Below, piece by piece: positions 11,930 through 28,551 of a DNA stretch of 53,462 nt. The first letter of the stretch is position 1. Each line of letters opens with the position of its first letter. The position numbers were made by a program, and so were the translations under genes. This DNA is from Candidatus Methylomirabilota bacterium (GTDB taxonomy: Bacteria > Methylomirabilota > Methylomirabilia > Rokubacteriales > CSP1-6). Below the pieces are notes generated by a model. It did not search any database. It saw nothing but the letters and a program-made list of their open reading frames with translations, and was not told where the DNA came from. The DNA is taken from contig DASTYT010000022.1 in the NCBI GenBank assembly GCA_035764725.1, positions 1 to 53,462 on the forward strand. The letters are read 5' to 3'.

Positions 11930-11957
11930 AAGATAACACACTGCGTTATGACGTCAA
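11930..11957 (-). promoter_or_regulatory. Promoter of phasin 1
   Basis: On the minus strand TTGACG (11952-11957) and TATCTT (11930-11935) are 16 bp apart. The leader would be about 68 nt. The spacer contains the inverted repeat at 11934-11948. Confidence 0.55.
11934..11948. promoter_or_regulatory. Putative PhaR operator O1 (phasin 1)
   Basis: TAACACACTGCGTTA is an imperfect 15-bp palindrome with core ACAC-N3-GCGT. It overlaps the phasin 1 -10 and spacer, a position where a bound protein would block RNA polymerase. It matches the sites at phaR, phaP2 and phaC. Confidence 0.6.
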
Positions 11958-11964
11958 GCGAAAT

Positions 11965-11980
11965 TTAACGCATGGCGTAA
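11965..11980. promoter_or_regulatory. Putative PhaR operator O2 (phasin 1 / DUF445 intergenic)
   Basis: TTAACGCATGGCGTAA contains an exact ACGC-N3-GCGT core (11968-11978). It is centred about 32 bp from O1, roughly three helical turns, so cooperative binding is possible. It also overlaps the expected -35 region of the DUF445 gene. Confidence 0.5.
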
Positions 11981-11988
11981 ATCTCCCT

Positions 11989-11994
11989 TATATT
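11989..11994 (+). promoter_or_regulatory. -10 element of the DUF445 gene
   Basis: TATATT lies 9 nt before the GTG start at 12004 in a locally AT-rich segment (about 11955-12003) that stands out in this GC-rich window. The matching -35 is weak (TTAACG, 18 bp upstream, inside O2). A leaderless or near-leaderless transcript is expected. Confidence 0.45.
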
Positions 11995-12003
11995 GTTGAT
12001 AAC

Positions 12004-13293
12004 GTGAGTCAAACCACCACGACTTCCGCCGTCTTTCGGCCCCGCAGGCAGCGACGCCTGGCCCTCATCGTCCTGCTCGTCGCGGTCGCCTTGGCCATCG
12101 CCGCGTTCCCGCTGCGGGGCGCCTGGTGGGGGGGCTGGATCCTCGCGATCGCGGAGGCGGGGATCGTGGGTGGCCTGGCCGACTGGTTCGCCGTGACGGC
12201 GATCTTCCGGCGTCCGCTCGGCCTCCCCATTCCCCACACCGCGCTGATCCCGGCGAACTGGGAGCTGATGGCGGCGCGAGTCGGCAGCATGGTCGGCGAT
12301 CGCGTCCTCACCAAGGAGTACGTGACCCACGAGGTGGCCCGCTTCGATCTCGCGGAGCTGCTCGCCCGCGCGGCGGAACGCGTGAAGCCGGCCGACCTCG
12401 AGGCGGGTCTCCACCGGGTGGCCCGCTGGCTCGCCGAGCAGCTCTCCCCCGCCGCCACCGCGGACGTCGTCGCGTGGACTCGTCGGCTGCTGCTCGGCCA
12501 GCCCGTTGCGCCCCTCCTCGCGCGCGCCATCGAGATCGCGCGCCGTCAGGGCTGGGATCAGCGCGCGATCGAGGCCCTCGCCACGGCGCTCGCGGACGCG
12601 CTGGACCGGCCCGACGTCCGCACCGCCGTGGCCGACCTGGTCGACGAGGTGCTCCTGAGCTACCGGGAGAAGATGGGCACCTACCCACGTCTCCTCCTGG
12701 GGCTCGCGGACGCGTTCGGTCTCATCGACCGCAACCGGCTCGTGGGGGCGCTCCACGGGGCGGTGCGGAAAATTGCCGCCGATCCCGACGACCCGCTGCG
12801 ACGCCAGCTCGCGGACCTGATCGCCGGCTTGCCGGCGCGGCTGCGCACCGATCCAGGCCTGGCCGCCAGGGTCGAGGCGGCAAAGACCGAGCTCATCGCG
12901 AGCGCCGAAGTGAGCCGTCTGATCGAGGACGCGGCAGAGGCCCTGCGTCGGGCGCTGGTGGCCGATCTGTCCAGCGAGCGCTCGGAGGCGGTCGCGTGGA
13001 TCGGCGCGCGCCTCGAGGAGCTGCGGCGGGAGCTCGCCACCGACGCCGAGCTGCGCCAGAGCCTCGATCGCTGGATCAAGACCCGCGCCATCGAGGTGAT
13101 CGAGCGCTACCACGATCGCATCGCCGCCTTCATCGAGCGGGGCGTTCACGCCCTGGGCCCCGAGGGCGCGGTGCGGCTCATCGAGGAGCATGCCGGGGAT
13201 GATCTTCAGTACATCCGAGTGAACGGCACCGTGGTCGGTGGCCTGGCCGGCGGCGCGCTCTACGCGATCCACCTGCTCCTCCACCTGCTGTGA
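12004..13293 (+). CDS. DUF445 family membrane protein
   Basis: A 429-residue protein with a membrane hairpin near the N-terminus (about residues 20-60) containing the DUF445 signature GGLADWFAVTAIFRRP. A long helical cytoplasmic or periplasmic body rich in Arg and Glu follows, and a C-terminal hydrophobic segment (GGLAGGALYAIHLLLHLL) ends the chain. DUF445 proteins such as YheB/YjiN have no settled function. I chose the GTG at 12004 because family similarity begins just after it and TATATT is 9 nt upstream. The longer frame from 11842 would run back through the phasin promoter. Confidence 0.8.
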   Translation: MSQTTTTSAVFRPRRQRRLALIVLLVAVALAIAAFPLRGAWWGGWILAIAEAGIVGGLADWFAVTAIFRRPLGLPIPHTALIPANWELMAARVGSMVGDRVLTKEYVTHEVARFDLAELLARAAERVKPADLEAGLHRVARWLAEQLSPAATADVVAWTRRLLLGQPVAPLLARAIEIARRQGWDQRAIEALATALADALDRPDVRTAVADLVDEVLLSYREKMGTYPRLLLGLADAFGLIDRNRLVGALHGAVRKIAADPDDPLRRQLADLIAGLPARLRTDPGLAARVEAAKTELIASAEVSRLIEDAAEALRRALVADLSSERSEAVAWIGARLEELRRELATDAELRQSLDRWIKTRAIEVIERYHDRIAAFIERGVHALGPEGAVRLIEEHAGDDLQYIRVNGTVVGGLAGGALYAIHLLLHLL

Positions 13294-13330
13294 GTGGCGC
13301 GTGGGCTAGAATGGGGGCCGAGGGGATTCC

Positions 13331-13870
13331 ATGAGACTCGCCGTCCTGGGATTGCTCGTGCTACTCGCGGCGCCGGCCGGCGCGCAGGAGGCGCCGTTCG
13401 AGCTCAACGGGCTCGTCCTCGGCTCGGACCAGGCCTCGGTCGAAGCGTCGTCACGGTTCGCGTGCGCGGATCCGCAAAGCCCGGCGGCGGACAAGCTCTG
13501 CCGGCTCCGGCCCGGCCAGAGCGAGACTGTGGCGGGGGCGCCGGTCAAGCGCCTCTTCCTCTACTTCTACTCCGGCAAGCTCGAGATGATCTCGGTCACG
13601 CTCGATGCGAAGTACTTCGTGGACGTGGTCACCGCCCTGACCAAGGAGTACGGCAAGGCGGCGGTCGAGACCGAGACCATGCAGAATCTCAGCGGCGCCG
13701 CGTACGAGAACCGGATCTACACGTGGCGCCGAGGGAATGCCACCCTCGAGGTCCAGACCTACGGCCGCGACCTTGAGAACTCGTCGATGATCTACCGCAC
13801 CGACTTCTCGCTGCAGGAATACACGCGGCGGAGCGGGGCCAAAGCGCCAGGTAAGACCAAGAGCCAGTAG
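13331..13870 (+). CDS. Small secreted protein of unknown function
   Basis: A 179-residue protein with a Sec signal peptide (RLAVLGLLVLLAAPAGAQ). The mature part has two cysteines (FACADP and KLCRL), probably disulfide bonded, and alternating beta-type segments such as FLYFYSGKLEMISVTLDAKYF. I do not recognise a named domain. A GAGGGGA Shine-Dalgarno precedes the ATG, and TAGAAT (13307-13312) is a possible -10. It follows the DUF445 gene by 37 bases and ends 21 bases from the convergent P450 gene. Confidence 0.65.
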   Translation: MRLAVLGLLVLLAAPAGAQEAPFELNGLVLGSDQASVEASSRFACADPQSPAADKLCRLRPGQSETVAGAPVKRLFLYFYSGKLEMISVTLDAKYFVDVVTALTKEYGKAAVETETMQNLSGAAYENRIYTWRRGNATLEVQTYGRDLENSSMIYRTDFSLQEYTRRSGAKAPGKTKSQ

Positions 13871-13891
13871 CCCCGGCCGAGGCCGCCAGGC

Positions 13892-16800
13892 TCAGCTCGA
13901 CGCCCAGACGTCGATCAGGTAACGGTTGGCGCGGATCAGGCCGTCGATCCACGCCTCCGCCTGCGCATCGCTTCCGCCCCTCTTGGCGCGGTGGACCGCC
14001 ACAAACGCGCGCCGGACATCCGGCGCCATGCGGGCGGCGTCGCCGCAGACGTAGACTACCGCTCCCCGCTCGAGCAGCCCCCACACCGCGTCCTGCCGCG
14101 TGAGGACCTCGTCCTGGACGTAGACGCGGGGTCGCTCCGGCACGCGTGAAAAACACGGATGGAGCGTCACCACCCCGCGCTCGGCGAAGTCGCGCAGCTC
14201 GCCCTCGTAGATGAAGTCCTGCTCGGGATGGCGGCAGCCGGAGAAGAGCAGCGCGGGGCCGACGGCGCGCCCCTGCGCGGCGAGGGCCGCTCGCTCCTGG
14301 AGGAACCCGCGGAAGGGCGCCAGACCCGTGCCGGGCCCGACCATGATGATGGGCGTGGCCGGATCCTCCGGCAGACGGAACGCCGAGCGGGTGTCCTTGA
14401 CGAACGCCTGCACCACGCTGCCCCCGCCGTGGCGCAGGAGATGGTTCGAGCACACGCCCTCGAAGCGACCCCGTCCCGAGCGCGCCTCGCCCGCGACCAC
14501 GGCCACCGTGATGCTGCACCGGCGCGCGTCCTGCAGGGGTGACGACGAGATCGAGTAGTAGCGCGGCCGGAGCGGCGGGAGCAGCTCCAGATAGACGTTG
14601 AACGGGAGCTGACAGGCCGGGTACTCCTCGAGCAGGTCGAGCACCGACTTGCGCCGGGCCGCCACCTCGTCCCGGTACCGGGCGTCGTCTGCGGCCAGCG
14701 TGGCGAGGCGGGGCCGCGTCCACGGGCATTCCGTGTGCTCGACCATGGTCTCGATGTGCCGGCGCGACGCGACGTCCTGGAGCTCCACGAACTCGCCGAG
14801 CAGCCGGGCGAGGGCGATGGGCGCGCCGACGGGCAAGAACCCCGCGCGGCCCCCGTCGCGCCGGAGCAGGAGGTGGCTCCCGCGGTCGAGACCGAAGCGG
14901 GCGGCCACCCGCGCCACCAGCGCGTCCGGGTTGCGCGGCGCCACGCCCAGGTGATCCCCGGCCCGGTACACGACCCCCGCGGGCAGCTCGATCTCGAGGT
15001 GCCGGGTCGAGCGCTCCGAGGCGAAGGGGCCGGTCTTGGTGTGCAGCTCGCGATTCACGGCGACGCGCATGGGCCGGGCGCCGTGGCCGTCCTCACGCGC
15101 GCCGGCGTCCGGGCCCGCCACCACCTCGACGGCGAGATGGGACACGTCCGCGGTGGATGCCGGCGCCAGCTCGACCCCGAGGGCGGCGGCGACATTGCCC
15201 CACGTCGACTGCTCCCACGTCGCGAGCTGCGCATCGAAATCGTCGCGCGCGTCCCCCTCGCCGCGCGGCGCGATGCGCTGGGCGCCAAGGGCCTCCAGCC
15301 GGGCGTCGATGAGCCGCGGCACCGCCTGGAACGTCGCCGCCCAGTCGCGATTGCCGCAGCCGAATACCGCGTAGCGCACGCCCGCGAGCGCCCCCGGGGG
15401 GAGGCGACCGTCGCGCAGCCAGTCGCAGAAGCGGCCGGCATTGTCGGGCGGCGTCCCGTTGTACGAGGCGCTGGTGATCAGCACCGCGCCCGCGCTGGGC
15501 AGCCGGCCCGTGTACTCGTCGAGCATGCCCACCGTCACCGTGAAGCCGTGATCCGTGCCGGCCTCGGCGAGGCGCCGCGCCACCTCCTCGGCGGTGCCGA
15601 GGTTCGAGCCGTAGAGCACGAGCAGCGGGGTGCCGTGACCCGGCCGCGGCGCGCGCGCGGGCGCCGTCGCGCCCGCCGGCGCCGCCGCGTGTGGGGAGGT
15701 CGCCACCGCGGCCGCCGCGCGGTCCCCCGTCGCCCGGTCGCGCGCGGTGCGGCGCCGGACCTTGATGCGGAAGCCGTCGGGCTTGACGGTGAGCGTCTCC
15801 TTGAGGGCGAGCCGGTAGCGCGTGTGGTCGATGAGCTTGAAGCGGTGCAGGACCATGCCGAGGACCAGCGCGGCTTCCTGCAGGGCGAACTGGCGTCCGA
15901 TGCACGCGCGCTGCCCGTTCCCGAAGGGCTTGTAGGCGTTGGCGGGACGGCCGCGCTCGGCTTCGCGGCTGAAATGATCCGGGTTGAACACATCCGCCTG
16001 GTCGCCCCAGACCTTGCGGTCGCGGTGGAGCATCGGGCTCAGCACCACGATTTGGTAGTTCTTGCGCATCCGGTACTGGCCGCCGATCAGCTCGTCCTTG
16101 TACGGCGACAGTGCGAACACCGGCGCGGTGGGCCAGAGGCGGAGGGCCTCTTTCAGCACCTGCTCGATGTAGGTGAGCTGGTTCACCTGCTGATACGTAG
16201 GCAGCGTCGCCGGATCGGGACCGAGCACGCGGTCCACCTCGGCGTAGGCCCGCGCGAGCACCTCGGGGTTGTTGAGGAGATAGTAGATGGCGAACGACAG
16301 GAGCCCACTCGTGGTCTCGTGTCCCGCGATGAGGAACGTGATGACCTGGTAGCGAATGTTGAGATCGTCCAGCCGCTCGCCCGACTTCCGGTCTACCCCC
16401 GAGAGCATATGGCTCAGGAGGTCGGGCTTGTCGTGCACGTCGTCTCCGCTCTCCCGGCGCTCGCGCACGATGCGGTCCACCATCTCGTTCATGTAGCGGA
16501 TGTCCGCGCGCAGCTTCCGCTCGCGGTCCTTCTTGATCACGCTCTCCAGGGGCAGCCCGCGCGTCTCCATGGACGCGCCGAGGGCGCCGATCATCGCCCC
16601 CACGAAGGGGTGCGGCGACTCCCGGTAGAACGAGTTGAAGCGGTAGCCGAAGCCGCAGAGTCCGATGGTGTCCAGCGTGAGCGACGTCATGTCGTGCGTG
16701 ACATCGATCTCGTCGTCGGCGTTGAGGCGGTCCCACTTGAGGACGAGCTGCTCGGCGATGTCGAGCATCATCGGGTGATAACCCTGCATCGCGCGCTGGG

Positions 16801-17137
16801 CGAAGCTCGGCAGGAGGATGTTGTGGGCCTTGGCCCAGTTGGGCTCCTGGGTGTAGGCGGTGAAAAGCCCGTCGCCCGCGAAGGAGCGGAGGCGGCGGAG
16901 GGCGCCCCGTACGCTCTTGTCGAAGCGGGCCTCGTCGCAGAGCTCGTCGACCAGCTCGAAGCCGGACACGATCACCACCGGCTTGCCCAGCATGTCGAGC
17001 CAGTAGATGGATCCGTACTCGCGGGCGAGCTTCATCATGTCCTGCACCGGCGTGGTGGTGGTGAGCGACAGCAGATTGCCCAGCACGAACGTGCGCGGCG
17101 GATGCGGGATCGGGTCGAGGAGATTCTTCTTGGCCAT
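13892..17137 (-). CDS. Self-sufficient cytochrome P450-reductase fusion (CYP102/P450 BM3 type)
   Basis: The 1081-residue fusion has a P450 heme domain (1-460), an Ala/Pro-rich linker (about 463-502), an FMN flavodoxin domain (YGSNLGTAEE near 509) and an FAD/NADPH reductase domain (RYYSISSSP; NADPH motif GPGTGLAPFRGF). Heme Cys412 lies in FGNGQRACIG, the oxygen-activating AGHETT is at 271-276 and ExxR is Glu330/Arg333. Phe92 aligns with BM3 Phe87. The BM3 carboxylate-anchoring Arg47/Tyr51 are Lys and a hydrophobic residue here, so chain-length or substrate preference may differ. Expected activity is NADPH-driven subterminal hydroxylation of fatty acids. The upstream SDR stops 5 bases before the start. 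Confidence 0.92.
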   Translation of the reverse strand: MAKKNLLDPIPHPPRTFVLGNLLSLTTTTPVQDMMKLAREYGSIYWLDMLGKPVVIVSGFELVDELCDEARFDKSVRGALRRLRSFAGDGLFTAYTQEPNWAKAHNILLPSFAQRAMQGYHPMMLDIAEQLVLKWDRLNADDEIDVTHDMTSLTLDTIGLCGFGYRFNSFYRESPHPFVGAMIGALGASMETRGLPLESVIKKDRERKLRADIRYMNEMVDRIVRERRESGDDVHDKPDLLSHMLSGVDRKSGERLDDLNIRYQVITFLIAGHETTSGLLSFAIYYLLNNPEVLARAYAEVDRVLGPDPATLPTYQQVNQLTYIEQVLKEALRLWPTAPVFALSPYKDELIGGQYRMRKNYQIVVLSPMLHRDRKVWGDQADVFNPDHFSREAERGRPANAYKPFGNGQRACIGRQFALQEAALVLGMVLHRFKLIDHTRYRLALKETLTVKPDGFRIKVRRRTARDRATGDRAAAAVATSPHAAAPAGATAPARAPRPGHGTPLLVLYGSNLGTAEEVARRLAEAGTDHGFTVTVGMLDEYTGRLPSAGAVLITSASYNGTPPDNAGRFCDWLRDGRLPPGALAGVRYAVFGCGNRDWAATFQAVPRLIDARLEALGAQRIAPRGEGDARDDFDAQLATWEQSTWGNVAAALGVELAPASTADVSHLAVEVVAGPDAGAREDGHGARPMRVAVNRELHTKTGPFASERSTRHLEIELPAGVVYRAGDHLGVAPRNPDALVARVAARFGLDRGSHLLLRRDGGRAGFLPVGAPIALARLLGEFVELQDVASRRHIETMVEHTECPWTRPRLATLAADDARYRDEVAARRKSVLDLLEEYPACQLPFNVYLELLPPLRPRYYSISSSPLQDARRCSITVAVVAGEARSGRGRFEGVCSNHLLRHGGGSVVQAFVKDTRSAFRLPEDPATPIIMVGPGTGLAPFRGFLQERAALAAQGRAVGPALLFSGCRHPEQDFIYEGELRDFAERGVVTLHPCFSRVPERPRVYVQDEVLTRQDAVWGLLERGAVVYVCGDAARMAPDVRRAFVAVHRAKRGGSDAQAEAWIDGLIRANRYLIDVWASS

Positions 17138-17142
17138 GGCGC

Positions 17143-18000
17143 TCAGGCGCTCCGCGCCGGCCCGGCGGGGGGCGCGCCGCTCGCCGCGCCCTTCTGGAAG
17201 CCCTCGAGGAACGGCACGCTCTGGCCCAGCACGAAGTCCATGAGCCCCGGCGCCACCGTGTTGAGCAGTCCCACCACCTGGGCGTCGAGCGCCATCACGA
17301 TCTCGGGCTGGGGCAGCCGCGCGTCGTCCACGATGATGCGGGCCAGCTCGCGCGCCGGGAACTTCGGCAGGAGGCTCGCGAGATCGAGCCCGGTGCGGTT
17401 GTTGGTCGTCTCCCAGATCTCGGACTCGATGGCGCCCGGGAAGATCGTGCTCACGTCGATGCCCTGCGCCATCACCTCGGTACGCAGCGCCTCGGAGAAA
17501 CCGGCCATGGCGAACTTGCTGGCGCAGTACGCCGTCTCGTACGGCAGGCCTCGCTTGCCCATGATGGAGGCAATATTGATGATGAGCCCGCCCCCGGCCT
17601 GCGCGCGCATGCGCGGCACCGCCGCCTTGCACGCGTAGACCGCGCCCCAGAAGTTGACGTCCATCACCCGGCGGAACTCCTCGAGGGACTGCTCTTCGAA
17701 CCGCGCCGCCAGGCCCATCCCGGCATTGTTCACGAGTGTATCCACGCTGCCGAACCGCTCAATGGCGCGCTCGATGAGCTGCGCGACCTGGACGGGATCA
17801 GCCACGTCGGTGCGCACCGCGAGGGCCGCGCCACCCTGCCCCTCGATCTCGGCCACCAGCTCGCCCAGGCGGTCCTCCCGCCGCCCCGCCGCGACCACCC
17901 GCGCGCCGGCGCGGGCGAACTCGCGGGCCGTCTCGCGACCGATGCCGCTGGTGGCGCCGGTGATGACGACGGTGGTGCCGCGGACCTGCCGGGGGGCCAT
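17143..18000 (-). CDS. SDR family oxidoreductase
   Basis: A 285-residue classical SDR with TGATSGIG (residues 15-22), NNAGMG and the catalytic YCASK. The sequence after the second strand (AAGRRED) suggests NADP. The C-terminal 60 residues are longer than in FabG and include a hydrophobic helix, as in membrane-associated SDRs acting on lipids or sterols. It lies immediately upstream of the CYP102-type gene in the same operon, so it may oxidise the hydroxylated product. The ATG at 18000 fits the family start. Confidence 0.85.
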   Translation of the reverse strand: MAPRQVRGTTVVITGATSGIGRETAREFARAGARVVAAGRREDRLGELVAEIEGQGGAALAVRTDVADPVQVAQLIERAIERFGSVDTLVNNAGMGLAARFEEQSLEEFRRVMDVNFWGAVYACKAAVPRMRAQAGGGLIINIASIMGKRGLPYETAYCASKFAMAGFSEALRTEVMAQGIDVSTIFPGAIESEIWETTNNRTGLDLASLLPKFPARELARIIVDDARLPQPEIVMALDAQVVGLLNTVAPGLMDFVLGQSVPFLEGFQKGAASGAPPAGPARSA

Positions 18001-18011
18001 TGCGTGCGCGA

Positions 18012-18437
18012 TCAGGTCCGCGCGCCGCCGCCCGGGCGCAGAGTCTCGGCGGCGCGCGCGAGCGCGTCCATCCAGAGCTTGTACGCCTTCCCCTGTGCCT
18101 GGGTGAGGCGCGCGATGGCGTCGGACAGCTCGCTCGGCGAGGCGCCGCTGGCGAGCGTGAGGGGCAGGCGCATCCACGCCACGCCGGCGGCGAGCGCCGC
18201 CTCGTGCAGCTCGCGCAAGGCGGCCCCACCGTCAGCGAGGCCGGGCGCCGGCCGCGGGAGCTGCGCCGTCCACGCGCCCGCCACCTCGCCCCAGCTCCGT
18301 GCGGCATTGTTCCAGAACTCCTGGGCCTGGCGGAAGCCCTCGAGGAGGGAGCGGGAGCCGGTCTCCCACGCCTCCCGGAGCTCGTCGGGGCTCATGCCGG
18401 GCGGATGCTTGCCGGAGGGTGTGTCGGGGTTCGCCAT
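18012..18437 (-). CDS. Helical protein of unknown function, phasin/PhaE-like composition
   Basis: A 141-residue protein, predicted mostly helical, with Trp and Phe spaced along amphipathic helices (EFWNNAARSWGEVAGAW). This resembles phasins and the PhaE subunit in style but I see no decisive family motif. The N-terminus is Pro/Ser-rich. It sits between a GNAT acetyltransferase gene (17-base gap) and the SDR gene (11-base gap) in the P450 operon. A granule- or membrane-surface role is only a guess. Shine-Dalgarno CAGGAGG precedes the ATG. Confidence 0.55.
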   Translation of the reverse strand: MANPDTPSGKHPPGMSPDELREAWETGSRSLLEGFRQAQEFWNNAARSWGEVAGAWTAQLPRPAPGLADGGAALRELHEAALAAGVAWMRLPLTLASGASPSELSDAIARLTQAQGKAYKLWMDALARAAETLRPGGGART

Positions 18438-21602: not shown

Positions 21603-23396
21603 TCAGCGATAGAGCTGGTCGATCGCGGCCTGGTACTGCTCGCGGATGACCTTGCGCTTCACCTTGAGGGTCGGGGTGAGGAGCCCGTTCTCGACAGTGA
21701 AGTCGGAGGGGAGGACGGTGAACTTCTTCACCTTGGCGTAGGACTGCAGCTCCCCATTCCGCTCCTCCACGATCTTCGTGACGCGCGCCACGACCTTCGG
21801 GTGCGCGCACAGCGCCGCCGGGTCCACGGTGGGCAGCCCCTGCGCGGCGGCGAACTTCAAGAGCTCCTCGGGGTTCAGCGTGATCAGCGCGATCGGATAC
21901 GGCCGGCGGTCGCCGTAGACCATCACCTGGCTGATGAAGGGGTCGCCCTTGAGGAGGTTCTCGATGTTCTGCGGGGCGATGTTCATGCCGCCCGCGGTGA
22001 CGATGAGATCCTTCTTCCGATCCGTGATGAAGAGGAACCCGTCCTCGTCGAAGCGTCCGATGTCGCCGGTGGCAAACCATCCGTCGGCGAGAAACACCTC
22101 GGCGGTAGCGTCCGGCTTCTTGAAGTAGCCCTTGGCGATGTTGCGCCCGCGACCGAGGATCTCGCCGTCCGGCGCGATCTTCACCTCGACGGATGGCAGC
22201 GGGAGGCCGACCGAGCCGAACTTGAAGCGGTCCTCGCGGTTGTTGGTGAGCACCGGGCACGTCTCGGTGAGGCCGTACCCCTCGAGGATCAGGATGCCGG
22301 CGGCGTGGAAGAACTCGGCGATCTCGCGCGACAGCGGCGCGCCGCCCGACACGGCGAAGCGCAGGCGGCCGCCCAGGGCGGCGTGCATCTTCGAGAACAC
22401 GAGGGCGTGGGCGATGCGCGCCTTGACCGCGAGGCCGCCGGGCACCGGCTTGCCCGCCTGCTTGAGCCGCGAGACTTCCTTCCCCACGCCCACCGCCCAA
22501 TGGAAGATCTTCTTCTTGAGCGACGAGCCCGCGTCGGCCTTGGCGAGCACGCCCGCGTAGACCTTCTCGAACACCCGGGGCACGCTGCAGATGAAGTGCG
22601 GGCGGGCCTCGGGCAAGTTGTCGCGCAGCTTGTCGATGTTCTCGGCGAACGCGGTCAGGAGTCCCCGGTGGATGCCGATGAAGGACTCGAGTCGCGCGAA
22701 GGAATGCGCGAGGGGCAGGAACAGCAGGTGCACGTCGCCCTCGGCGATGTGGGTGGTCTGAGCGGCCGACTCCAGCGCCGACATGTGATTGCCGTGCGTC
22801 TGCACCACGCCCTTGGGCGGCCCGGTGGTCCCCGAGGTATACACGATGGTGGCCACGTCCTCGGGCCGGCCGCCCGCGATTCGCGCCTCCAGCTCCCCGC
22901 GCACGCGCTCGGCCTGATCGCGCCCGAGCTGGCGGAGCTGGTCCCACGTCTGCACGCGGGGCCCCGGCGCCGCCCCCGCCGCGGGCTGGATCACGATGAT
23001 GTGCTCAAGGCCCTCCATCTTCCCCTGCACCTCGAGGACCTTGGCGAGCTGGCCGGCGTCCTCCACGAACAGGGTGCGGACGCCCGCGTCGTTGACGATG
23101 TACTGGATGAGGTCCGGGGGGTAGCTCGGATAGATGGGAATCGTCACGGCGCCAATCGAGAAGATGGCGAAGTCCGCCTGCACCCACTCGGCGCGGCTCG
23201 CCGAGAGAATCCCCACCGCGTCGCCCTTCTTTCGGCCGAGGGCGAGCAGCCCCGAGGCCAGCTCGCGTACGGTCTGACCGACTTCCTTCCACGTCATCGT
23301 CGTCCAGGCGGCACCGCGCTTGGCTTGCTGGGCCGGACGATCGCCGCCGCGCTCGACGCGGTTCCAGAACATCTTCGCCAGGGTGTCGTGGGTCAT
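21603..23396 (-). CDS. Long-chain acyl-CoA ligase (AMP-forming)
   Basis: A 597-residue ANL-superfamily enzyme of FadD15/long-chain type. The P-loop YTSGTTGPPKG is at 186-196. The A5 motif is GYGLTETCP, the A7-A8 hinge is ATGDIGRFDEDGFLFITDRKKD, and the C-terminal Lys region is near SYAKVKKF. It activates fatty acids to acyl-CoA with ATP, feeding beta-oxidation, PHA or neutral lipid. A GAGGAGGGG Shine-Dalgarno precedes the ATG. A TAAGAT -10-like element lies inside the end of the upstream OB-fold gene. It leads a two-gene unit with the SDR. Confidence 0.92.
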   Translation of the reverse strand: MTHDTLAKMFWNRVERGGDRPAQQAKRGAAWTTMTWKEVGQTVRELASGLLALGRKKGDAVGILSASRAEWVQADFAIFSIGAVTIPIYPSYPPDLIQYIVNDAGVRTLFVEDAGQLAKVLEVQGKMEGLEHIIVIQPAAGAAPGPRVQTWDQLRQLGRDQAERVRGELEARIAGGRPEDVATIVYTSGTTGPPKGVVQTHGNHMSALESAAQTTHIAEGDVHLLFLPLAHSFARLESFIGIHRGLLTAFAENIDKLRDNLPEARPHFICSVPRVFEKVYAGVLAKADAGSSLKKKIFHWAVGVGKEVSRLKQAGKPVPGGLAVKARIAHALVFSKMHAALGGRLRFAVSGGAPLSREIAEFFHAAGILILEGYGLTETCPVLTNNREDRFKFGSVGLPLPSVEVKIAPDGEILGRGRNIAKGYFKKPDATAEVFLADGWFATGDIGRFDEDGFLFITDRKKDLIVTAGGMNIAPQNIENLLKGDPFISQVMVYGDRRPYPIALITLNPEELLKFAAAQGLPTVDPAALCAHPKVVARVTKIVEERNGELQSYAKVKKFTVLPSDFTVENGLLTPTLKVKRKVIREQYQAAIDQLYR

Positions 23397-23460
23397 GGGC
23401 CCCTCCTCACGCCAGAGTGCGGAGCTCGCGGGTCCGCCGGTCGATGCATGAAGCCGTATC

Positions 23461-23796
23461 TTAGCGGACCGTGACCCGGAATGCCTGGATGAGATTGGGG
23501 CCGGGCTTGTAGACGCCTTCGACCTCCACGCGGTCGCCCACCTTGACCGGGAAGCCGGCGACCGCCATCACGTCCACGGTGGCGCCCCCATCGATGAGCG
23601 TGAAGCGCTGGCCGGCGGCGGAGCCGAGCGGCGCCGCGAAGGCCACCGTCCCCTCAACCGTGATCGTCCGCTCCGCGAAGCGCGCGCGTTCCGAGAAGAG
23701 CGTGGGGAGAGGCACGCGCTGGGCGAGCGCGGGGACGGCGGCGAGGACACAGGCGAGCCCCAGGAGCGAGGCGACAATCCAGCGGCGGTTCGTCAT
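23461..23796 (-). CDS. Small secreted OB-fold-like protein
   Basis: A 111-residue protein with a Sec signal peptide (RRWIVASLLGLACVLAAVPALAQ). A compact beta-rich domain follows, with segments TITVEGTVAFAAPLG, RFTLIDGGATVDVMAV and VGDRVEVEGVYKPG, the pattern of an OB-fold (tRNA_anti-like). The role is unknown; a ligand- or oligonucleotide-binding periplasmic function is possible. Its ATG overlaps the stop of the M48 protease gene in ATGA, so the two are translationally coupled. Confidence 0.65.
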   Translation of the reverse strand: MTNRRWIVASLLGLACVLAAVPALAQRVPLPTLFSERARFAERTITVEGTVAFAAPLGSAAGQRFTLIDGGATVDVMAVAGFPVKVGDRVEVEGVYKPGPNLIQAFRVTVR

Positions 23797-24470
23797 GGAC
23801 ACACCTCCGCGAGCGCCTGGAGCCGGGCTCCGGGGCTCGGATGCGTGGACAGCCAGTTGAAGTACTCGGGCCGTTGCCCTTCGCGCTCGAGGCGCTGAAG
23901 CAGCGCCACCAGCGCCCGGCAGCGCGTCCCGTCCCCCGGCAGCCGGTTCAGGAGCTGCGCAGCCCATCGGTCCGCCGCGCGCTCTTCCTCTCGATCGTAG
24001 GCGCGAAAGGCGGCCGCCTGCGCGCCTCGCTGCACCATCACGCCGCGCTCGACCTGGCGGCGCGCCCGGCGCGCCCCGAAATGTCCGAGCTCGACGTGCC
24101 CCAGCTCGTGCGCGAGGGCCGCGCGCATCTCTTCCGGAGGCAGCCGCTGGAGCGCGCCCTCGGTGACGAGCAGGCTGAACCGGCACGCCGGGTGCGGCGC
24201 GACGCCCATGTTGATGTTGCTTCTCGGCAGGATCCCCACCGCGACCGCGCATCCATCCTCCGGCCCCCGCCAGATGCCGGAGGTGCGGAGCAGCGGGGCG
24301 AGCGCCGCCGAAACCTTGAAGCGCTCATCGTCGGTCGCCTCACGCGGCGCGACCGCCGAGGTAGCCGCGGGCGGCTTCGGGGGCGCGCTCTCGCACCCGC
24401 CGAGCACGACCGCTCCGACGACACCGATCAGGCCTAACGCGATGCGACACCATGATTGACCGCCTTTCAC
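23793..24470 (-). CDS. M48-family metalloprotease, lipoprotein
   Basis: A 225-residue zinc protease with the HELGH motif in a larger AHELGHVELGH helix. The third ligand Glu is in EEERAADRWA. A lipoprotein signal ends VVLGGCES, so it acts at the cell envelope. It resembles small M48 (Oma1/LoiP-like) quality-control proteases. I chose GTG at 24470 because TATAAC lies 7 nt upstream on this strand and the signal peptide begins there. An ATG at 24500 gives ten more residues but would overlap that -10 and the divergent phaP2 promoter. Confidence 0.75.
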   Translation of the reverse strand: MKGGQSWCRIALGLIGVVGAVVLGGCESAPPKPPAATSAVAPREATDDERFKVSAALAPLLRTSGIWRGPEDGCAVAVGILPRSNINMGVAPHPACRFSLLVTEGALQRLPPEEMRAALAHELGHVELGHFGARRARRQVERGVMVQRGAQAAAFRAYDREEERAADRWAAQLLNRLPGDGTRCRALVALLQRLEREGQRPEYFNWLSTHPSPGARLQALAEVCP

Positions 24471-24485
24471 GCGTCGCGTTATACT
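24456..24485 (+). promoter_or_regulatory. Promoter of phaP2
   Basis: TTGACC (24456-24461) and TATACT (24480-24485) are 18 bp apart, one of the best promoters in the window. The spacer holds the inverted repeat ACGCGTCGCGT. The divergent M48 gene has an overlapping TATAAC, so one operator could control both directions. Confidence 0.65.
24469..24479. promoter_or_regulatory. Putative PhaR operator (phaP2)
   Basis: ACGCGTCGCGT is a perfect 5+1+5 palindrome with an exact ACGC-N3-GCGT core. It lies between the -35 and -10 of phaP2, like O1 at phasin 1. Confidence 0.6.
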
Positions 24486-24523
24486 GAGTCTTGCGGACAT
24501 TCTCGTGACGAAGGAGTCACATC

Positions 24524-24970
24524 ATGACGACGACAGCCGAGACGAGCGAGGCGCTGGGCCAGATGACCGGCGCCGCGGTCGAGATGTTCACCCTCTTCGC
24601 CGACGCCAACCAGAAGATCCTCCGTGAGCTGGTCGACTTCTCCGCGACCGCCGCGAGGGAGGGCGTGCGGCTCTATGCCGAGCTCCAGTCCTCCGCGGTG
24701 GAGGCGCTCAAGGACGGCCAGAGCTTCCTCCTCCGCCGGCAGATCGAGCTGCAGGGCGCGCCCGAGCCCGCGCTCGCGTATCAGCGTGGCGTGCAGGAAT
24801 CGGTCGACGGCGCGCAGCGGGTCTTCCGCCTCGTCGAGACCAATGCCCAGGCGGTGACCCGCTCCGCGGAGCGGCTGCAGGTCAGCGCCGAGCAAGCCAG
24901 TCAGGAGATCCAGGCGGCCTTCGCGCAGCTCGCCAACCGGCTGCCGTCGCTCTACACGCCGCGCGACTAG
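24524..24970 (+). CDS. Phasin family protein 2
   Basis: A 148-residue helical phasin, paralogous to the one at 11436 (shared LVETNAQ, then SAER and SAEQ/SAER segments). It should coat PHA granules. GAAGGAG precedes the ATG. The gene is immediately convergent with phaR, sharing the CTAG stop overlap, which is a common phaP/phaR style of linkage. Expression is probably repressed by PhaR until granules titrate the repressor. Confidence 0.85.
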   Translation: MTTTAETSEALGQMTGAAVEMFTLFADANQKILRELVDFSATAAREGVRLYAELQSSAVEALKDGQSFLLRRQIELQGAPEPALAYQRGVQESVDGAQRVFRLVETNAQAVTRSAERLQVSAEQASQEIQAAFAQLANRLPSLYTPRD

Positions 24971-25473
24971 CCGCCGCGGCGCTTCTCCAGGCGCTCTTCG
25001 AGGGCGCGGAGCTGCTCGCGTAGCGCCGCCACCTCGCCGCGGAGCGCGTCCGCCTCGCCGACGGGTTCCCCCTTGCGCTCGGGAGCGGGCGCGGCCGCCG
25101 GCTTGGCCCCGGGCATCGCCCAGCCCGCGCGCACCGCCCACTCGCGGAACACGCGGTCGGCCTCGCGCTGGCTCGTCATGATCGCGTCGAGGCTCGACTT
25201 CATCGAGGACTGGAAGAACTCCTGCCAGGCTTCGCCGTGCTTGATGAGCTGATGGAGGAAGGCGGTGGGCAACGCGGCACGGTGGTTGCGCTCGTTCTCG
25301 AGAATGATCTGAGCGAGCGTCACCGAGGTCAGATCCTCGCCGCTGGAGACGTCCACCACCGAGATCTCCTTGCCCGCGCGGATGAGCTCCTCGAGCTCCT
25401 CCAGGGTGACGTAGCGGCTCTCCTGCGTATCGTAGAGCTTGCGATTGGAGTATCGCTTGATCACGTACGCCAT
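24967..25473 (-). CDS. phaR: Polyhydroxyalkanoate synthesis repressor PhaR
   Basis: A 168-residue protein with the PHB/PHA accumulation regulator N-terminal DNA-binding domain. The signature IKRYSNRKLYDTQESRYVTL is at residues 5-24, followed by the PHB_acc region with EISVVDVSSGEDLTS and ILxNE. The C-terminal third is a low-complexity linker and a coiled coil (ADALRGEVAALREQLRALEE). PhaR binds phasin promoters and the granule surface in other bacteria. Its own promoter overlaps the inverted repeat at 25484-25498, so autoregulation is likely. The -10 is 6 nt from the ATG, suggesting a leaderless mRNA. Confidence 0.93.
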   Translation of the reverse strand: MAYVIKRYSNRKLYDTQESRYVTLEELEELIRAGKEISVVDVSSGEDLTSVTLAQIILENERNHRAALPTAFLHQLIKHGEAWQEFFQSSMKSSLDAIMTSQREADRVFREWAVRAGWAMPGAKPAAAPAPERKGEPVGEADALRGEVAALREQLRALEERLEKRRGG

Positions 25474-25479
25474 GGCGCG

Positions 25480-25508
25480 AGTCTAACACCGCGCGTCAGG
25501 GCCCACAA
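25480..25508 (-). promoter_or_regulatory. Promoter of phaR
   Basis: On the minus strand TTGTGG (25503-25508) and TAGACT (25480-25485) are 17 bp apart. The -10 is 6 nt before the phaR ATG. No Shine-Dalgarno is visible. Confidence 0.5.
25484..25498. promoter_or_regulatory. Putative PhaR operator (phaR autoregulation)
   Basis: TAACACCGCGCGTCA has the core ACAC-N3-GCGT, the same form as O1 at phasin 1. It overlaps the phaR -10 and spacer. Confidence 0.5.
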
Positions 25509-25587
25509 GCCGACGCGCCGCCGCCCTGCTATACTGGCGCACGCTTCGCCGATCCATTCCCTCGACCGGCCATCCAGGAGGGTCGTC

Positions 25588-26331
25588 ATGCAGCTCGCCG
25601 GCCGCACCGCTCTCGTCACCGGAGGCTCCCGCGGCATCGGTCGCGCCATCGCGTTCGCGCTCGCCCAGGAGGGCGCCGACGTCGCGATCAACTACGTGTC
25701 GAGCGAGACCCCCGCGCGCGAGATCGCGGAGGCGATCGGCGCGCTCGGCCGGCGCTCTATGCTCGCCCAGGCCGACGTCGCCGACTATCCGGACACCTAT
25801 CGGATGGCGCAAGACGTGCTGAAGGAATTCGGGCACCTCGACATCCTGATCAACAACGCGGGCGTGACGTCGGACAAGAGCTTCGTCAAGATGGACCACG
25901 CCTCGTGGCGCAAGGTGCTCGCCATCAACCTCGACGGCGTCTTCAACTGCACCAAGGTGTTCATCGACCAGATGCTCAAGCAGAGCTTCGGCCGGGTCGT
26001 CAACATCACGTCGGTCATCGGGCAGATCGGCAACTTCGGACAGGCCAACTACGCGGCGTCCAAAGCAGGGGTGGCCGCCTTCACGAAGTCGCTCGCCAAG
26101 GAGCTCGCCGGCAAGGGTGTCACCGTGAACTGCGTGGCCCCGGGCTTCACCGAGACCGACATGGTGACGTCGATCCCCGAGAAGGTGCGGCAGAAGCTCC
26201 TGGACCAGATCCCGATGCGGCGCTTCGGGAAGGCGGAGGAGGTCGCGCGGGCCTGCGTCTATCTCTGCGCCAAGGACGGCGACTACATCACGGGCGCCGA
26301 GCTCTCCATCAACGGCGGCCTCTTCATGTAG
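25588..26331 (+). CDS. phaB: Acetoacetyl-CoA reductase / 3-oxoacyl reductase
   Basis: A 247-residue SDR close to PhaB/FabG. It has TGGSRGIG, NNAGVTSDKSFVKM and the catalytic ITSVIGQ..NYAASK segments. The VIGQIGNFGQ loop and the EKVRQKLLDQIPM region are characteristic of acetoacetyl-CoA reductases. It would reduce 3-oxoacyl-CoA to (R)-3-hydroxyacyl-CoA with NADPH for PHA. A FabG role cannot be excluded by sequence, but its place between phaR and the phaC operon supports PhaB. A CAGGAGGG Shine-Dalgarno is present, and TATACT at 25530-25535 is a possible -10. Its stop directly abuts the stop of the convergent phaJ-like gene. Confidence 0.85.
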   Translation: MQLAGRTALVTGGSRGIGRAIAFALAQEGADVAINYVSSETPAREIAEAIGALGRRSMLAQADVADYPDTYRMAQDVLKEFGHLDILINNAGVTSDKSFVKMDHASWRKVLAINLDGVFNCTKVFIDQMLKQSFGRVVNITSVIGQIGNFGQANYAASKAGVAAFTKSLAKELAGKGVTVNCVAPGFTETDMVTSIPEKVRQKLLDQIPMRRFGKAEEVARACVYLCAKDGDYITGAELSINGGLFM

Positions 26332-26892
26332 TTACCGCCGCGGCTGGGACAGCGCCAGGAGGCTCCACGCCATGGCGCCCGTCACCGCCGCGCCCTGCGC
26401 CGCCCACGCCCATGGGACGAGCGCCCAGAGGGTGAGCGCGGCGGCGGGTCCCACCGTCCGCTCGTAGCGCACCGGCGTCCGCGATGGCTTGACCACCGCC
26501 TCACCCGCCAGCACCTCCTCGCCGTGCTGATTCACACACGACGTGCGGAGCCGCACGCGGTTCTTCTCCGGGCTGGCCTCCACCACCTCCACCCGGGCGG
26601 TGACCGCGTCGCCGAAGCGCACCGGGCGGTGGAACCGGAGATCCTGAGACAGGTACACCGTGCCGGGGCCCGGGAGGCGGGTGCCGATCACCGCGGAGAC
26701 GAGCCCGGCCGTCCAGATGCCGGGCGCGATTCGCTCCTTGAACGAGGTGCCGGCGGCATAGGCGCGGTCGGAATGGATCGGGTTGTAGTCACCGACCGAG
26801 TCCACGAAGCCCGCGATATCAGCCTCGTCGGCCACTCGGGTCAGCTCGGCGTGATCGCCGACGGTGAGCTCGTGGATGGTGACGCCGATCAT
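26332..26892 (-). CDS. phaJ: MaoC-like (R)-specific enoyl-CoA hydratase with C-terminal hydrophobic extension
   Basis: A 186-residue protein. The first 140 residues or so form a MaoC hot-dog domain with the hydratase motif in DYNPIHSDRAYA (catalytic Asp and His), as in PhaJ, which converts trans-2-enoyl-CoA to (R)-3-hydroxyacyl-CoA for PHA synthase. The last 40 residues are an unusual hydrophobic stretch that could form two membrane helices or a hairpin (AAALTLWALVPWAWAA and AVTGAMAWSLLAL). Canonical PhaJ ends before this. The ATG overlaps the phaE stop in ATGA. It is the last gene of the phaC-phaE-phaJ operon. Confidence 0.8.
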   Translation of the reverse strand: MIGVTIHELTVGDHAELTRVADEADIAGFVDSVGDYNPIHSDRAYAAGTSFKERIAPGIWTAGLVSAVIGTRLPGPGTVYLSQDLRFHRPVRFGDAVTARVEVVEASPEKNRVRLRTSCVNQHGEEVLAGEAVVKPSRTPVRYERTVGPAAALTLWALVPWAWAAQGAAVTGAMAWSLLALSQPRR

Positions 26893-27386
26893 CGACTCTC
26901 CAGCCGCTTGAGGATCGCGTCGAGCTTGTCCTCGAGCCCCTCGAGCTTCTCCTCGAGCAGCACCACCTGCTTGGCCAGCCCCACGACCTGGCTGCGCGAC
27001 GGCAGGCCCAGGCCGGCGAGCGAGCCCTCGATCTGCTGCTCGGCAGCCTTCTTGGCGGGACTGGCCGCGTTGAGGAAGCCCTCCATCTGCCTCCCCAGCG
27101 TCTTGGCGAAGGCCTCGGTGCTCATCGCCTGCTCGAGCACCCGCGACCACGCCGCGATCCACTGATCGAGGAACTGCTTCCACTGGGCCATGAGATCGGG
27201 CGAGGCCTGGCCCTGCGTCATCACCTTCGACCACGCGGCCATGCCCTGGTCCATGAAGGGACGCCAGAATGCCTGTGGGTCGAGCGGCTGGGCCTGCGGC
27301 GCGCCCAGCATCCGGAGCCACGCCTGGCTGCCTTCCTCCACCTGCTTCTTCCACATGTCCATGAGCTGCTGAGTGGGGTCTGCCAT
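26889..27386 (-). CDS. phaE: Class III PHA synthase subunit PhaE
   Basis: A 165-residue helical protein with Trp-rich repeats (MWKKQ, QAFWRPFMDQGMAAWSK, LDQWIAAWSR) and a C-terminal coiled coil (VVLLEEKLEGLEDKLDAIL), typical of short PhaE subunits. It lies 11 bases downstream of a 366-residue PhaC, which marks a class III synthase. PhaE is needed for activity and granule placement in known systems. It is shorter than the roughly 350-residue PhaE of purple sulfur bacteria. I chose the ATG at 27386; the open frame upstream runs through phaC and is not real. Confidence 0.8.
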   Translation of the reverse strand: MADPTQQLMDMWKKQVEEGSQAWLRMLGAPQAQPLDPQAFWRPFMDQGMAAWSKVMTQGQASPDLMAQWKQFLDQWIAAWSRVLEQAMSTEAFAKTLGRQMEGFLNAASPAKKAAEQQIEGSLAGLGLPSRSQVVGLAKQVVLLEEKLEGLEDKLDAILKRLESR

Positions 27387-27397
27387 AGCATGTCCTC

Positions 27398-28498
27398 CTA
27401 CGATCTGGCGGCGAGCCAGGACGCGACCTTGGGCCAGCAGTGGACGGAAGCGCCGCGGCCGGCGATCAGCGAGATGTGGCCGCCCGCCAGCTCGACGTAC
27501 TCGCGGTCCACGCTTCCCACCGCGCCAATGAGGGGCTTCACGCAGGCCGGGGGCGCGATGTTGTCCTCCTTCGCGCCCACCGCCAGGACGGGGCACCGGA
27601 TGTTGCGGAGGCTCACCGGCCGGCCGCCCATGCGCAGATCGCCGCGGATCAGCCGGTTCTGCTGGTAGAAGTCCTTCACCCACTGGCGAAAGAACTCGCC
27701 GGGGAACGGTTGGTACTCGTTCGCCCACTTGTTGAGCGCGTTGAAGCCCGTCACGTACTCGGTGTTCCAGAGATTCCACCAGAGGTTGAGATTGGTGGAG
27801 AGATCCATCGTCGGCTTGAGCAGCTTGAAGCCTGCCTTGACCATGTCGGCGGGGATACTGCCGAGGGTGTCCACGTACTTGTCCACGTCGAACACCTTCG
27901 CGTCGAGCCACCTGGCGAAGAGGCCGGCCTGGGAGAAATCGATCGGCCCCGCCATGTCGACGTAATTCTTCACCGGGAACTCGGGCCGCGAGCCGAGGAA
28001 GCTCGCGGAGATCGGGGCGCCCATGCAGTAGCCGAGCACGGAGATCTCGGACGCGCCGGACGACTGCAGCGTCTTGTCGGCCATGCGCGGCAGGATCTTC
28101 GTCACCACGTCCTCGAACGTGAGGTCGTTGTCCTCCGCGCCGAACACGCCCCAGTCGAGGAGATACATGTCGAAGCCTTGCTGGGTCATGTGCTCGATGA
28201 ACGAGCCCTTGGGCATGAGGTCGAAGATGTAGGGGCGGCTGATCCCGAGGTTCGGCACGAAGAGCACCGGGGTGCGATGCGTGCGCCGGGACTCGTAGCG
28301 GTAGAGCCGCGACTTGTTCTTCCGGTAGATCTCCTCGCGCGGCGTGGGCCCGACCTCGGGCTCCTTGGGGTTCATGACCATCTCGGAGAAGTGCTTCATG
28401 CGGAGGAAGTTGCGGTTGGCCTCCTCCTGCCACCGGGCCCGCACCTCCGGCGGCACGCCCGGCATCTCCGGCACCATCGTGAACAGTTCGTCCTTCAT
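27398..28498 (-). CDS. phaC: Class III poly(R)-hydroxyalkanoate synthase subunit PhaC
   Basis: The 366-residue length is that of class III PhaC (about 355), not class I or II (about 600). The lipase-like box is GYCMG with nucleophile Cys158. The catalytic Asp312 is in GAKEDNIAP and His341 in GGHISLIAG. The VPNLGISRPYIFDL and YLLDWG segments are family hallmarks. With PhaE it polymerises 3-hydroxyacyl-CoA at the granule surface. GGGAGG precedes the ATG. The promoter overlaps a perfect 15-bp palindrome, indicating PhaR control. First gene of phaC-phaE-phaJ. Confidence 0.95.
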   Translation of the reverse strand: MKDELFTMVPEMPGVPPEVRARWQEEANRNFLRMKHFSEMVMNPKEPEVGPTPREEIYRKNKSRLYRYESRRTHRTPVLFVPNLGISRPYIFDLMPKGSFIEHMTQQGFDMYLLDWGVFGAEDNDLTFEDVVTKILPRMADKTLQSSGASEISVLGYCMGAPISASFLGSRPEFPVKNYVDMAGPIDFSQAGLFARWLDAKVFDVDKYVDTLGSIPADMVKAGFKLLKPTMDLSTNLNLWWNLWNTEYVTGFNALNKWANEYQPFPGEFFRQWVKDFYQQNRLIRGDLRMGGRPVSLRNIRCPVLAVGAKEDNIAPPACVKPLIGAVGSVDREYVELAGGHISLIAGRGASVHCWPKVASWLAARS

Positions 28499-28521
28499 GC
28501 GTCCTCCCTTGGGCTCACGCC

Positions 28522-28551
28522 ATCCTATCCGGGCCTGACGCTCTGCGTCAA
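28522..28551 (-). promoter_or_regulatory. Promoter of phaC-phaE-phaJ
   Basis: On the minus strand TTGACG (28546-28551) and TAGGAT (28522-28527) are 18 bp apart. A leader of about 16 nt would carry the GGGAGG ribosome-binding site. Confidence 0.55.
28536..28550. promoter_or_regulatory. Putative PhaR operator (phaC)
   Basis: TGACGCTCTGCGTCA is a perfect palindrome of 6-bp arms around TCT, with an exact ACGC-N3-GCGT core. It overlaps the -35 of the phaC promoter. It is the most symmetric of the five sites. Confidence 0.65.

What the first reader, a model, noticed from the sequence alone, without database searches (positions are those of the whole stretch)
11930..28551. A shared ACGC-N3-GCGT inverted repeat marks all PHA promoters: likely PhaR regulon operator
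Five sites share one core: 11934-11948 (TAACACACTGCGTTA), 11965-11980 (TTAACGCATGGCGTAA), 24469-24479 (ACGCGTCGCGT), 25484-25498 (TAACACCGCGCGTCA) and 28536-28550 (TGACGCTCTGCGTCA). They lie within or beside the promoters of phasin 1, phasin 2, phaR and phaC. Three sit between -35 and -10 or on the -10, and one overlaps the -35, so binding would repress. The phasin 1 gene is 13 kb from phaR yet carries two sites. PhaR in other bacteria controls phasin and phaR promoters; I do not know of this motif being described. The core is 8 specified bases, so about two chance matches are expected in a window this size, but the placement in four PHA promoters is hard to explain by chance.
Basis: partly seen in the sequence, partly recalled or inferred. 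Interest (0 to 1): 0.82.

Follow-up and report, generated by a model that had tools for sequence, protein, structure and literature searches.

The report
PhaR operators of Rokubacteria bioplastic genes
Six copies of one 15-base palindromic DNA signal sit upstream of the carbon-storage (bioplastic) genes of a likely Rokubacteria-lineage bacterium; they are likely docking sites of the repressor PhaR, spelled one base per half differently from the signal known in other bacteria.

Summary
The 8-base core alone is not enriched (4 found, 3.2 expected), but the 15-mer is: in the 5.19-Mb genome TRACRCNNNGCGTYA has 3 places, all in this window at PHA genes. A sixth site was missed (24435-24449), so both phasin promoters carry a pair 32 bp apart that brackets the predicted -35. 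A matrix from the window's sites alone finds a site upstream of the phaR-linked phasin in 39 of 39 and upstream of phaR in 42 of 42 named relatives, mostly Rokubacteria; other families of the class have it too. Spacing, layout and (in phasin sites) the RNY centre match the PhaR box proven in Proteobacteria, TGC-RNY-GCA. Here the half-site is CGC, and mixed TGC/CGC sites occur in distant relatives. PhaR binding, and repression of phasin, phaR and synthase promoters until PHA granules take PhaR up, are inferred. The name 'phasin' rests on sub-threshold profile scores plus context. Well supported, ordinary in kind, new in lineage and half-site.

The parts
11934..11948 (-). phasin 1 proximal operator TAACGCAGTGTGTTA (sense strand), between predicted -35 and -10, sharing two bases with the -10
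   Evidence: rank 1 with relatives' matrix
11966..11980 (-). phasin 1 distal operator, upstream of the -35, 32 bp from the proximal one; also overlaps the predicted -35 (TTAACG, 11965-11970) of the divergent DUF445 gene
11930..11957 (-). predicted phasin 1 promoter TTGACG-16-TATCTT with TG before the -10
   Evidence: consensus match only
11436..11855 (-). phasin 1: likely phasin, 139 aa
   Evidence: sub-threshold Phasin_2 match, E 0.055; 37% identical to phasin 2
24467..24481 (+). phasin 2 proximal operator in the -35/-10 spacer, sharing two bases with the -10
   Evidence: conserved in 39 of 39 relatives
24456..24485 (+). predicted phasin 2 promoter TTGACC-18-TATACT
   Evidence: consensus match only
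24524..24970 (+). phasin 2: likely phasin, 148 aa, predicted as two long helices
   Evidence: Phasin_2 only sub-threshold
24967..25473 (-). phaR, predicted repressor (PHB_acc_N domain)
   Evidence: PF07879 95.5 bits, cut-off 25; TIGR01848 96.4 bits, below its cut-off 109.45
25484..25498 (-). phaR operator TGACGCGCGGTGTTA (sense), asymmetric; between phaR and the divergent reductase gene
   Evidence: 42 of 42 relatives
25480..25508 (-). possible phaR promoter TTGTGG-17-TAGACT, read by eye
   Evidence: the promoter scan reports none here
25588..26331 (+). FabG/PhaB-like reductase, divergent from phaR
26332..26895 (-). MaoC-type hydratase, possibly PhaJ-like
26889..27389 (-). PhaE-like synthase subunit
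   Evidence: PF09712 30.7 bits, cut-off 25.7
27398..28498 (-). phaC, class III-like PHA synthase
   Evidence: best family TIGR01836, 288.1 bits, below its cut-off 365.3
28536..28550 (-). phaC operator TGACGCAGAGCGTCA (sense), covering five of the six bases of the predicted -35
28522..28551 (-). predicted phaC promoter TTGACG-18-TAGGAT
   Evidence: consensus match only

Best explanation
Six copies of a 15-bp inverted repeat, TRACGC-N3-GCGTYA, lie upstream of two likely phasin genes, phaR and the PHA-synthase gene phaC, and are likely the operators through which the repressor PhaR would switch these genes off while there is no PHA granule to bind it. Shown by the sequence: positions, the 32-bp step of both phasin pairs, conservation in relatives. 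Predicted: in the phasin promoters one site fills the spacer between -35 and -10 and a second lies just upstream of the -35; the phaR site overlaps its possible -10; the phaC site covers the -35; bound PhaR would therefore block RNA polymerase. Inferred from PhaR of other bacteria: PHA granules titrate PhaR away, phasins and synthase are then made, and PhaR limits its own synthesis. The operator is a variant of the PhaR box in which each TGC half-site has become CGC.
For: Strict pattern: 3 of 3 genome places in this window, control 0. Window-trained matrix in 42 named relatives: site upstream of the phaR-linked phasin 39 of 39, upstream of phaR 42 of 42; background 0.027 per 240 bp. Arms near-invariant, flanks and middle base variable. 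Exact TAACGC-RNY-GCGTTA: 16 places in 15 of 49 genomes, 15 of 16 at a phasin promoter. RNY centre, given no weight in the search, in 37 of 39 proximal and 30 of 32 distal phasin sites, as in the R. eutropha, S. meliloti and B. diazoefficiens PhaR motifs. B. diazoefficiens phaP1 has PhaR sites 6 bp either side of the -35 and phaP4 one on the -35: the same two layouts. Three of three f5 genomes fetched, with PhaR only 41-45% identical, keep the exact phaR site and the pair. In family f8, 6 of 6 phasin-like genes tested have strong sites, four of them of mixed type TAATGC-N3-GCGTTA, five on contigs other than those of phaR. phaC-phaE gap: site in 18 of 24 gaps of 55 bp or more, 0 of 12 under 40 bp.
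Against: No binding or expression data. RNY fails in phaR sites (4 of 42) and phaE sites (0 of 18) and in 3 of the 6 window sites. Ten of 35 relatives have no synthase-operon site at phaC or phaE. In f8, 5 of 11 phaR genes have only weak upstream sites (11.2-13.8) and 6 none. Five weak phasin-like paralogues in the own family have no site. The loose palindrome TNACGCNNNGCGTNA is in excess over its control also in 7 family genomes where no PhaR was found (50 against 17; with PhaR, 42 genomes, 367 against 83), so that count is not a clean link to PhaR. The phaR promoter is not found by the scan.
Confidence: 0.88

Rival explanations
1. The sites are operators of another regulator that controls the PHA genes together with phaR, for example the HxlR-type protein encoded beside phaC (28566-29546) or a regulator encoded elsewhere.
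For: An HxlR-domain gene lies next to phaC in the window. Binding by PhaR is not shown.
Against: No HxlR match in any of the 42 named loci with flanks of up to 10 kb, while phaR is there in all (by selection). Site upstream of phaR itself in 42 of 42. Gap, RNY centre and promoter layout equal those of footprinted PhaR sites.
Confidence: 0.08
2. The inverted repeats act as RNA hairpins in 5' leaders (attenuators or processing sites) rather than as DNA sites.
For: On the sense strand all six arm pairs can form (G-U allowed) in 41 of 42 phaR, 32 of 39 proximal phasin and 16 of 18 phaE sites.
Against: Distal phasin sites cannot: 0 of 32 sense, 1 of 32 antisense. The sites lie on or upstream of predicted -35/-10 boxes, so would not be transcribed. 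The phaR mismatches are fixed in 42 of 42, with no compensation.
Confidence: 0.03
3. Chance matches in GC-rich DNA.
For: The 8-base core is at chance level; one simulated window reached a score of 20.4.
Against: Six sites of 18.3 or more in one window with nothing else above 8.7; conservation in relatives.
Confidence: 0.01

Closest known systems
PhaR box of Bradyrhizobium diazoefficiens phaP1/phaP4, TGCRNYGCASMA (PMC6201568; passages)
   Same: Same 3-base gap and RNY centre; phaP1 has two sites bracketing the -35, phaP4 one site on the -35, as here for phasins and phaC
   Different: TGC half-sites; the phaP1 sites are closer together; large regulon; footprinted, whereas here only sequence evidence
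PhaR (AniA) site of Sinorhizobium meliloti, WNWD2NYGCRNYGCRNH2WNW (PMC12542648; passages and section 18 part 1)
   Same: Inner YGC-RNY-GCR admits CGC; two copies flank the -35 of phaP1 and phaP2; the site CGCCGCATTGCACAA upstream of phaR (L193), listed in their Table 3 under SMc03880 with weak binding, is of mixed CGC/TGC type
   Different: TGC dominates; many targets; phbC is not a target, while here phaC or phaE carries a site
PhaR sites of Ralstonia eutropha, YTKNTGCRNYGCANMAR (PMC12849132; passages)
   Same: Palindrome with the same gap and centre, at phaP1 near -35 and -10; EMSA-confirmed at phaP3
   Different: TGC half-sites, longer arms; one target (phaP3) is activated
PhbF site of Herbaspirillum seropedicae, TGNTGCN3GCAA (PMC3206438; passages)
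   Same: Footprinted on its own promoter; protein also shifts phbC promoter DNA
   Different: TGC half-sites; other lineage

Membership tests
PhaR box (PhaR operator) | Inverted repeat with GC-N3-GC core | tested here: met
   Window sites: GC (or AC) then 3 bases then GC. Relatives:
PhaR box (PhaR operator) | TGC/GCA half-sites as in Proteobacteria | tested here: not met
   CGC in the window and in 37 of 39 proximal phasin sites; TGC on one arm in 8 of 32 distal sites and in f8 sites. S. meliloti's YGC/GCR consensus admits CGC
PhaR box (PhaR operator) | RNY centre | tested here: inconclusive
   Met in 37 of 39 and 30 of 32 phasin sites and 8 of 11 phaC sites; not in phaR (4 of 42) or phaE (0 of 18) sites; 3 of 6 in the window
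PhaR box (PhaR operator) | Located at phasin promoters, often in pairs around the -35, and at phaR | tested here: met
PhaR box (PhaR operator) | Bound by PhaR | not testable with these tools
   needs gel shift or footprint
PhaR regulator family | N-terminal PHB_acc_N domain | tested here: met
   PF07879 95.5 bits, cut-off 25
PhaR regulator family | NCBI equivalog TIGR01848 above cut-off | tested here: not met
   96.4 bits, cut-off 109.45
PhaR regulator family | Binds PHA granules | not testable with these tools
   inferred from other species
Phasin (11436-11855 and 24524-24970) | Phasin profile above cut-off | tested here: not met
   Phasin_2 14.1 and 9.1 bits, cut-off 24.9; 11 of 25 relatives match at E up to 0.1, best 0.0098
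Phasin (11436-11855 and 24524-24970) | Small helical protein linked to PHA genes | tested here: met
   two long helices predicted for phasin 2; beside phaR in the named relatives
Class III PHA synthase | PhaC with PhaE subunit | tested here: inconclusive
   PhaE-like PF09712 above cut-off; PhaC best hit TIGR01836 but below its cut-off

The most novel reading that the evidence does not exclude
In the Methylomirabilota/Rokubacteria lineage the PhaR operator has drifted from TGC/GCA to CGC/GCG half-sites, with mixed sites still present in sister families. In this genome the regulon has shrunk to four promoters that include the synthase gene itself, so granule formation would titrate PhaR and switch on more synthase: a positive-feedback switch for carbon storage, unlike S. 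meliloti, where PhaR does not control the synthase gene.
Probability: 0.5. Interest if true: 0.5.

Novelty: new variant of a known kind. Interest (0 to 1): 0.4.

Why it matters
It gives a sequence-level PhaR regulon for a phylum known mainly from metagenome-assembled genomes, and a handle for naming PHA genes there: the operator marks phasin-like genes that profiles miss. The TGC to mixed to CGC series within one bacterial class is a natural series for asking how this repressor and its operator changed together. Control of the synthase by the granule-sensing repressor would be a testable wiring difference from S. meliloti.

Tried and rejected
Rejected: chance; RNA hairpin as a general explanation; the HxlR neighbour as the conserved regulator.

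Idea dropped: that the asymmetric half GTGTTA of the phaR site is explained by an extended -10 (TGnTA). It fits the 19 loci whose ATG is 25-36 nt from the site start (18 of 19 with TTG at -10 to -8 before the site) and window phasin 1. But 21 of the 23 loci with the ATG 43-77 nt away have TTGACG on the site itself, a likely -35, and the GTG half is kept there too (42 of 42 overall). The asymmetry stays unexplained; a deliberately weaker autoregulatory site is a guess.

Led nowhere: PDB sequence search with PhaR (0 hits); Foldseek of the PhaR and phasin 2 models (no match with E under 0.1); plasmid-borne PhaR loci as control (one YGC-RNY-GCR site upstream of phaR in S. meliloti, none in Azospirillum or Chlorohelix); the loose palindrome as a PhaR co-occurrence test (not clean). 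Literature searches. (Rokubacteria with polyhydroxyalkanoate) lists 10 papers, of which I saw passages of one (PMC8312272). Searches (161 papers, 10 listed; 510, 10 listed) are swamped by 'pharma' words. One search was useless. I saw no description of this variant in them; subscription papers are not held, so this is not proof of absence.
Full report
Observation. The informative unit is a 15-mer, TRACGC-N3-GCGTYA. In the own genome (5,189,759 bases, 156 contigs) TRACRCNNNGCGTYA has three places, all in this window; the reversed control has none. Of the 24 other places 14 were examined: 12 lie inside coding-like ORFs, 2 overlap a stop codon. A matrix made from relatives only ranks the six window sites first to sixth, 18.3-22.5 against 8.7 for the next.

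Genes. 24967-25473 is PhaR by PF07879 but below the cut-off of the narrower TIGR01848. 27398-28498 is a class III-like PhaC and 26889-27389 a PhaE-like subunit; 26332-26895 is a MaoC-type hydratase and 25588-26331 a FabG/PhaB-like reductase. The two 'phasins' score below the Phasin_2 cut-off. They are 37% identical and are the only two matches to phasin 1 in the genome; phasin 2 is predicted as two long helices. I call them likely phasins.

Promoter geometry (consensus matches). Phasin 2: TTGACC (24456-24461), 18 bp, TATACT (24480-24485); the proximal site 24467-24481 lies in the spacer and shares two bases with the -10, the distal site 24435-24449 ends 6 bp before the -35. Phasin 1: TTGACG-16-TATCTT on the minus strand; proximal site 11934-11948 again shares two bases with the -10, and the distal site 11966-11980 is upstream of the -35. 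Both pairs have a step of 32 bp. PhaC: TTGACG-18-TAGGAT with the site on the -35. For phaR the scan reports no promoter; by eye TTGTGG-17-TAGACT has the geometry of the phasin promoters.

Conservation in named relatives. A scan of genome contigs with PhaR gave 42 loci, 38 titled Rokubacteria or Rokuibacteriota; the other four are titled Elusimicrobia (1), NC10 (1) and Methylomirabilota (2). A divergent reductase within 1.2 kb of phaR is found in 39 of 42, a phasin in 42, MaoC in 40, PhaE in 41, PhaC in 38; some contigs are short. With a matrix from the window's six sites only, a site of 9 bits or more occurs upstream of the phasin in 39 of 39 loci with enough upstream DNA (two or more in 32), upstream of phaR in 42 of 42, upstream of phaC in 11 of 35; background 70 hits in 614,267 positions, 0.027 per 240 bp. 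With slightly looser inclusion the phasin count is 39 of 40; the miss, L111, has the contig end about 40 bases upstream. Several background hits are themselves sites between phaC and phaE: 18 of 38 loci have one there, 18 of 24 with a gap of 55 bp or more, 0 of 12 with a gap under 40; at phaC or phaE together 25 of 35. In all 18 a T precedes the site, and TTGACG is exact in 11; TAGGAT-like boxes follow at about 18 bp in several. In the window phaC and phaE are 8 bp apart and the site is before phaC. Partner sites of the phasin pair were sought 24-42 bp away; 32 of 40 loci have one of 9 bits or more, all 30-34 bp away, 8 do not. Arm columns are near-invariant while flanks and the middle base vary.

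Wider. In 20 stretches from relatives, those of f1, f3, f4, f5 (3) and f9 (2) have the phasin pair and the phaR site; f5 PhaR is only 41-45% identical. f7 has the pair but no phaR site. Of 11 f8 stretches 5 have only weak sites upstream of phaR (11.2-13.8) and 6 none, though three of these have strong sites downstream of phaR. Six f8 phasin-like genes, five on contigs other than those of phaR, all have strong sites, four of mixed type TAATGC-N3-GCGTTA. Two further f1 phasins in that call have pairs; five weak paralogues (27-34% identical to phasin 1) have none. TAACGC-RNY-GCGTTA has 16 places in 15 of 49 genomes, 15 of them at a phasin promoter; its reversed control has one match in each of three genomes. 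In the 12 PhaR-positive genomes, by my matching of coordinates, 24 of 29 strict places lie within 3.1 kb of phaR or just upstream of a phasin gene. Of the other five, two precede rho, one lies at the start of a GNAT gene, one is intergenic near an ORF without a Pfam match and one is inside an ORF. The nine genomes without detected PhaR in that call have seven places.

Mechanism and literature. The proteobacterial PhaR box is TGC-RNY-GCA: YTKNTGCRNYGCANMAR in R. eutropha (PMC12849132, passages); WNWD2NYGCRNYGCRNH2WNW in S. meliloti with two copies flanking the -35 of phaP1 and phaP2 (PMC12542648, passages and section 18 part 1); TGCRNYGCASMA in B. diazoefficiens, with phaP1 sites 6 bp either side of the -35 and a phaP4 site on the -35 (PMC6201568, passages); NGCN3GC[GA]N3 in a later study of that species (PMC10888616, passages); TGNTGCN3GCAA in H. 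seropedicae (PMC3206438, passages). The window's sites share spacing and placement, and phasin sites of relatives share the RNY centre (37 of 39; 30 of 32), which the search gave no weight. The half-site differs: CGC for TGC, with TGC on one arm in 8 of 32 distal sites. Hence a PhaR operator of variant sequence. Repression by occlusion and release by granules are inferred from those species. Control of the synthase would differ from S. meliloti, where phbC is not a target, but not from all: a review lists phaC1 and phaC2 among genes negatively regulated by PhaR in B. diazoefficiens (PMC9049629, passages), and PhbF shifts phbC promoter DNA.

Against. No binding data. RNY fails in phaR and phaE sites and in half of the window sites. 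Ten of 35 relatives lack a synthase-operon site. The loose palindrome TNACGCNNNGCGTNA exceeds its control also in seven family genomes without detected PhaR (50 against 17; 367 against 83 in 42 with PhaR; 30 against 26 in 11 f5 genomes without, 4 against 3 in three f5 genomes with PhaR), so that count is no clean test. The asymmetry of the phaR site (TGACGC-N3-GTGTTA, with small deviations in two of 42) is unexplained.

Verdict. Observation confirmed and extended; interpretation supported; the motif is a new lineage variant of a known operator.

Noticed in passing
25484-25498; phaR upstream of L081-L122: The phaR operator is asymmetric in a fixed way (TGACGC-N3-GTGTTA in phaR sense) in 42 of 42 relatives for the GTG half, across two different promoter layouts; unexplained.
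   Followed up: partly
L208 near 1585, L209 near 1559: Two family genomes have GATAACGC-N3-GCGTTATC between a TTGACA box and the rho gene (Rho domains confirmed by Pfam): longer arms, centre not RNY, possibly a rho-leader hairpin and a lookalike rather than a PhaR site.
   Followed up: partly
L132 near 1501 (G011:C17:8786): The one exact TAACGC-RNY-GCGTTA site not at a phasin lies at the start of a GNAT acetyltransferase gene; possible extra target in that genome.
   Followed up: partly
L108 and L109: A contig titled Elusimicrobia bacterium GWA2_69_24 carries the same phaR-phasin region as Rokubacteria GWC2_70_16, likely a binning or naming error; GWC2_70_16 itself has two different phaR loci (L109, L110).
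   Followed up: no
24435-24455: The distal phasin 2 operator lies within the first codons of the divergent M48 peptidase ORF if that starts at 24455.
   Followed up: no
11965-11994: The distal phasin 1 site overlaps a predicted -35 (TTAACG-18-TATATT) of the divergent DUF445 gene, so PhaR might also affect it.
   Followed up: no
L142-L146, L149, L150, L154, L156, L158, L159: Most f8 (g32) genomes carry two PhaR paralogues with weak or no upstream sites; possible division of labour.
   Followed up: partly
24967-25473 (model): The PhaR N-terminal domain is predicted as strand-strand-strand-helix-strand-helix with no convincing PDB match, while a paper calls it helix-turn-helix (passages).
   Followed up: partly
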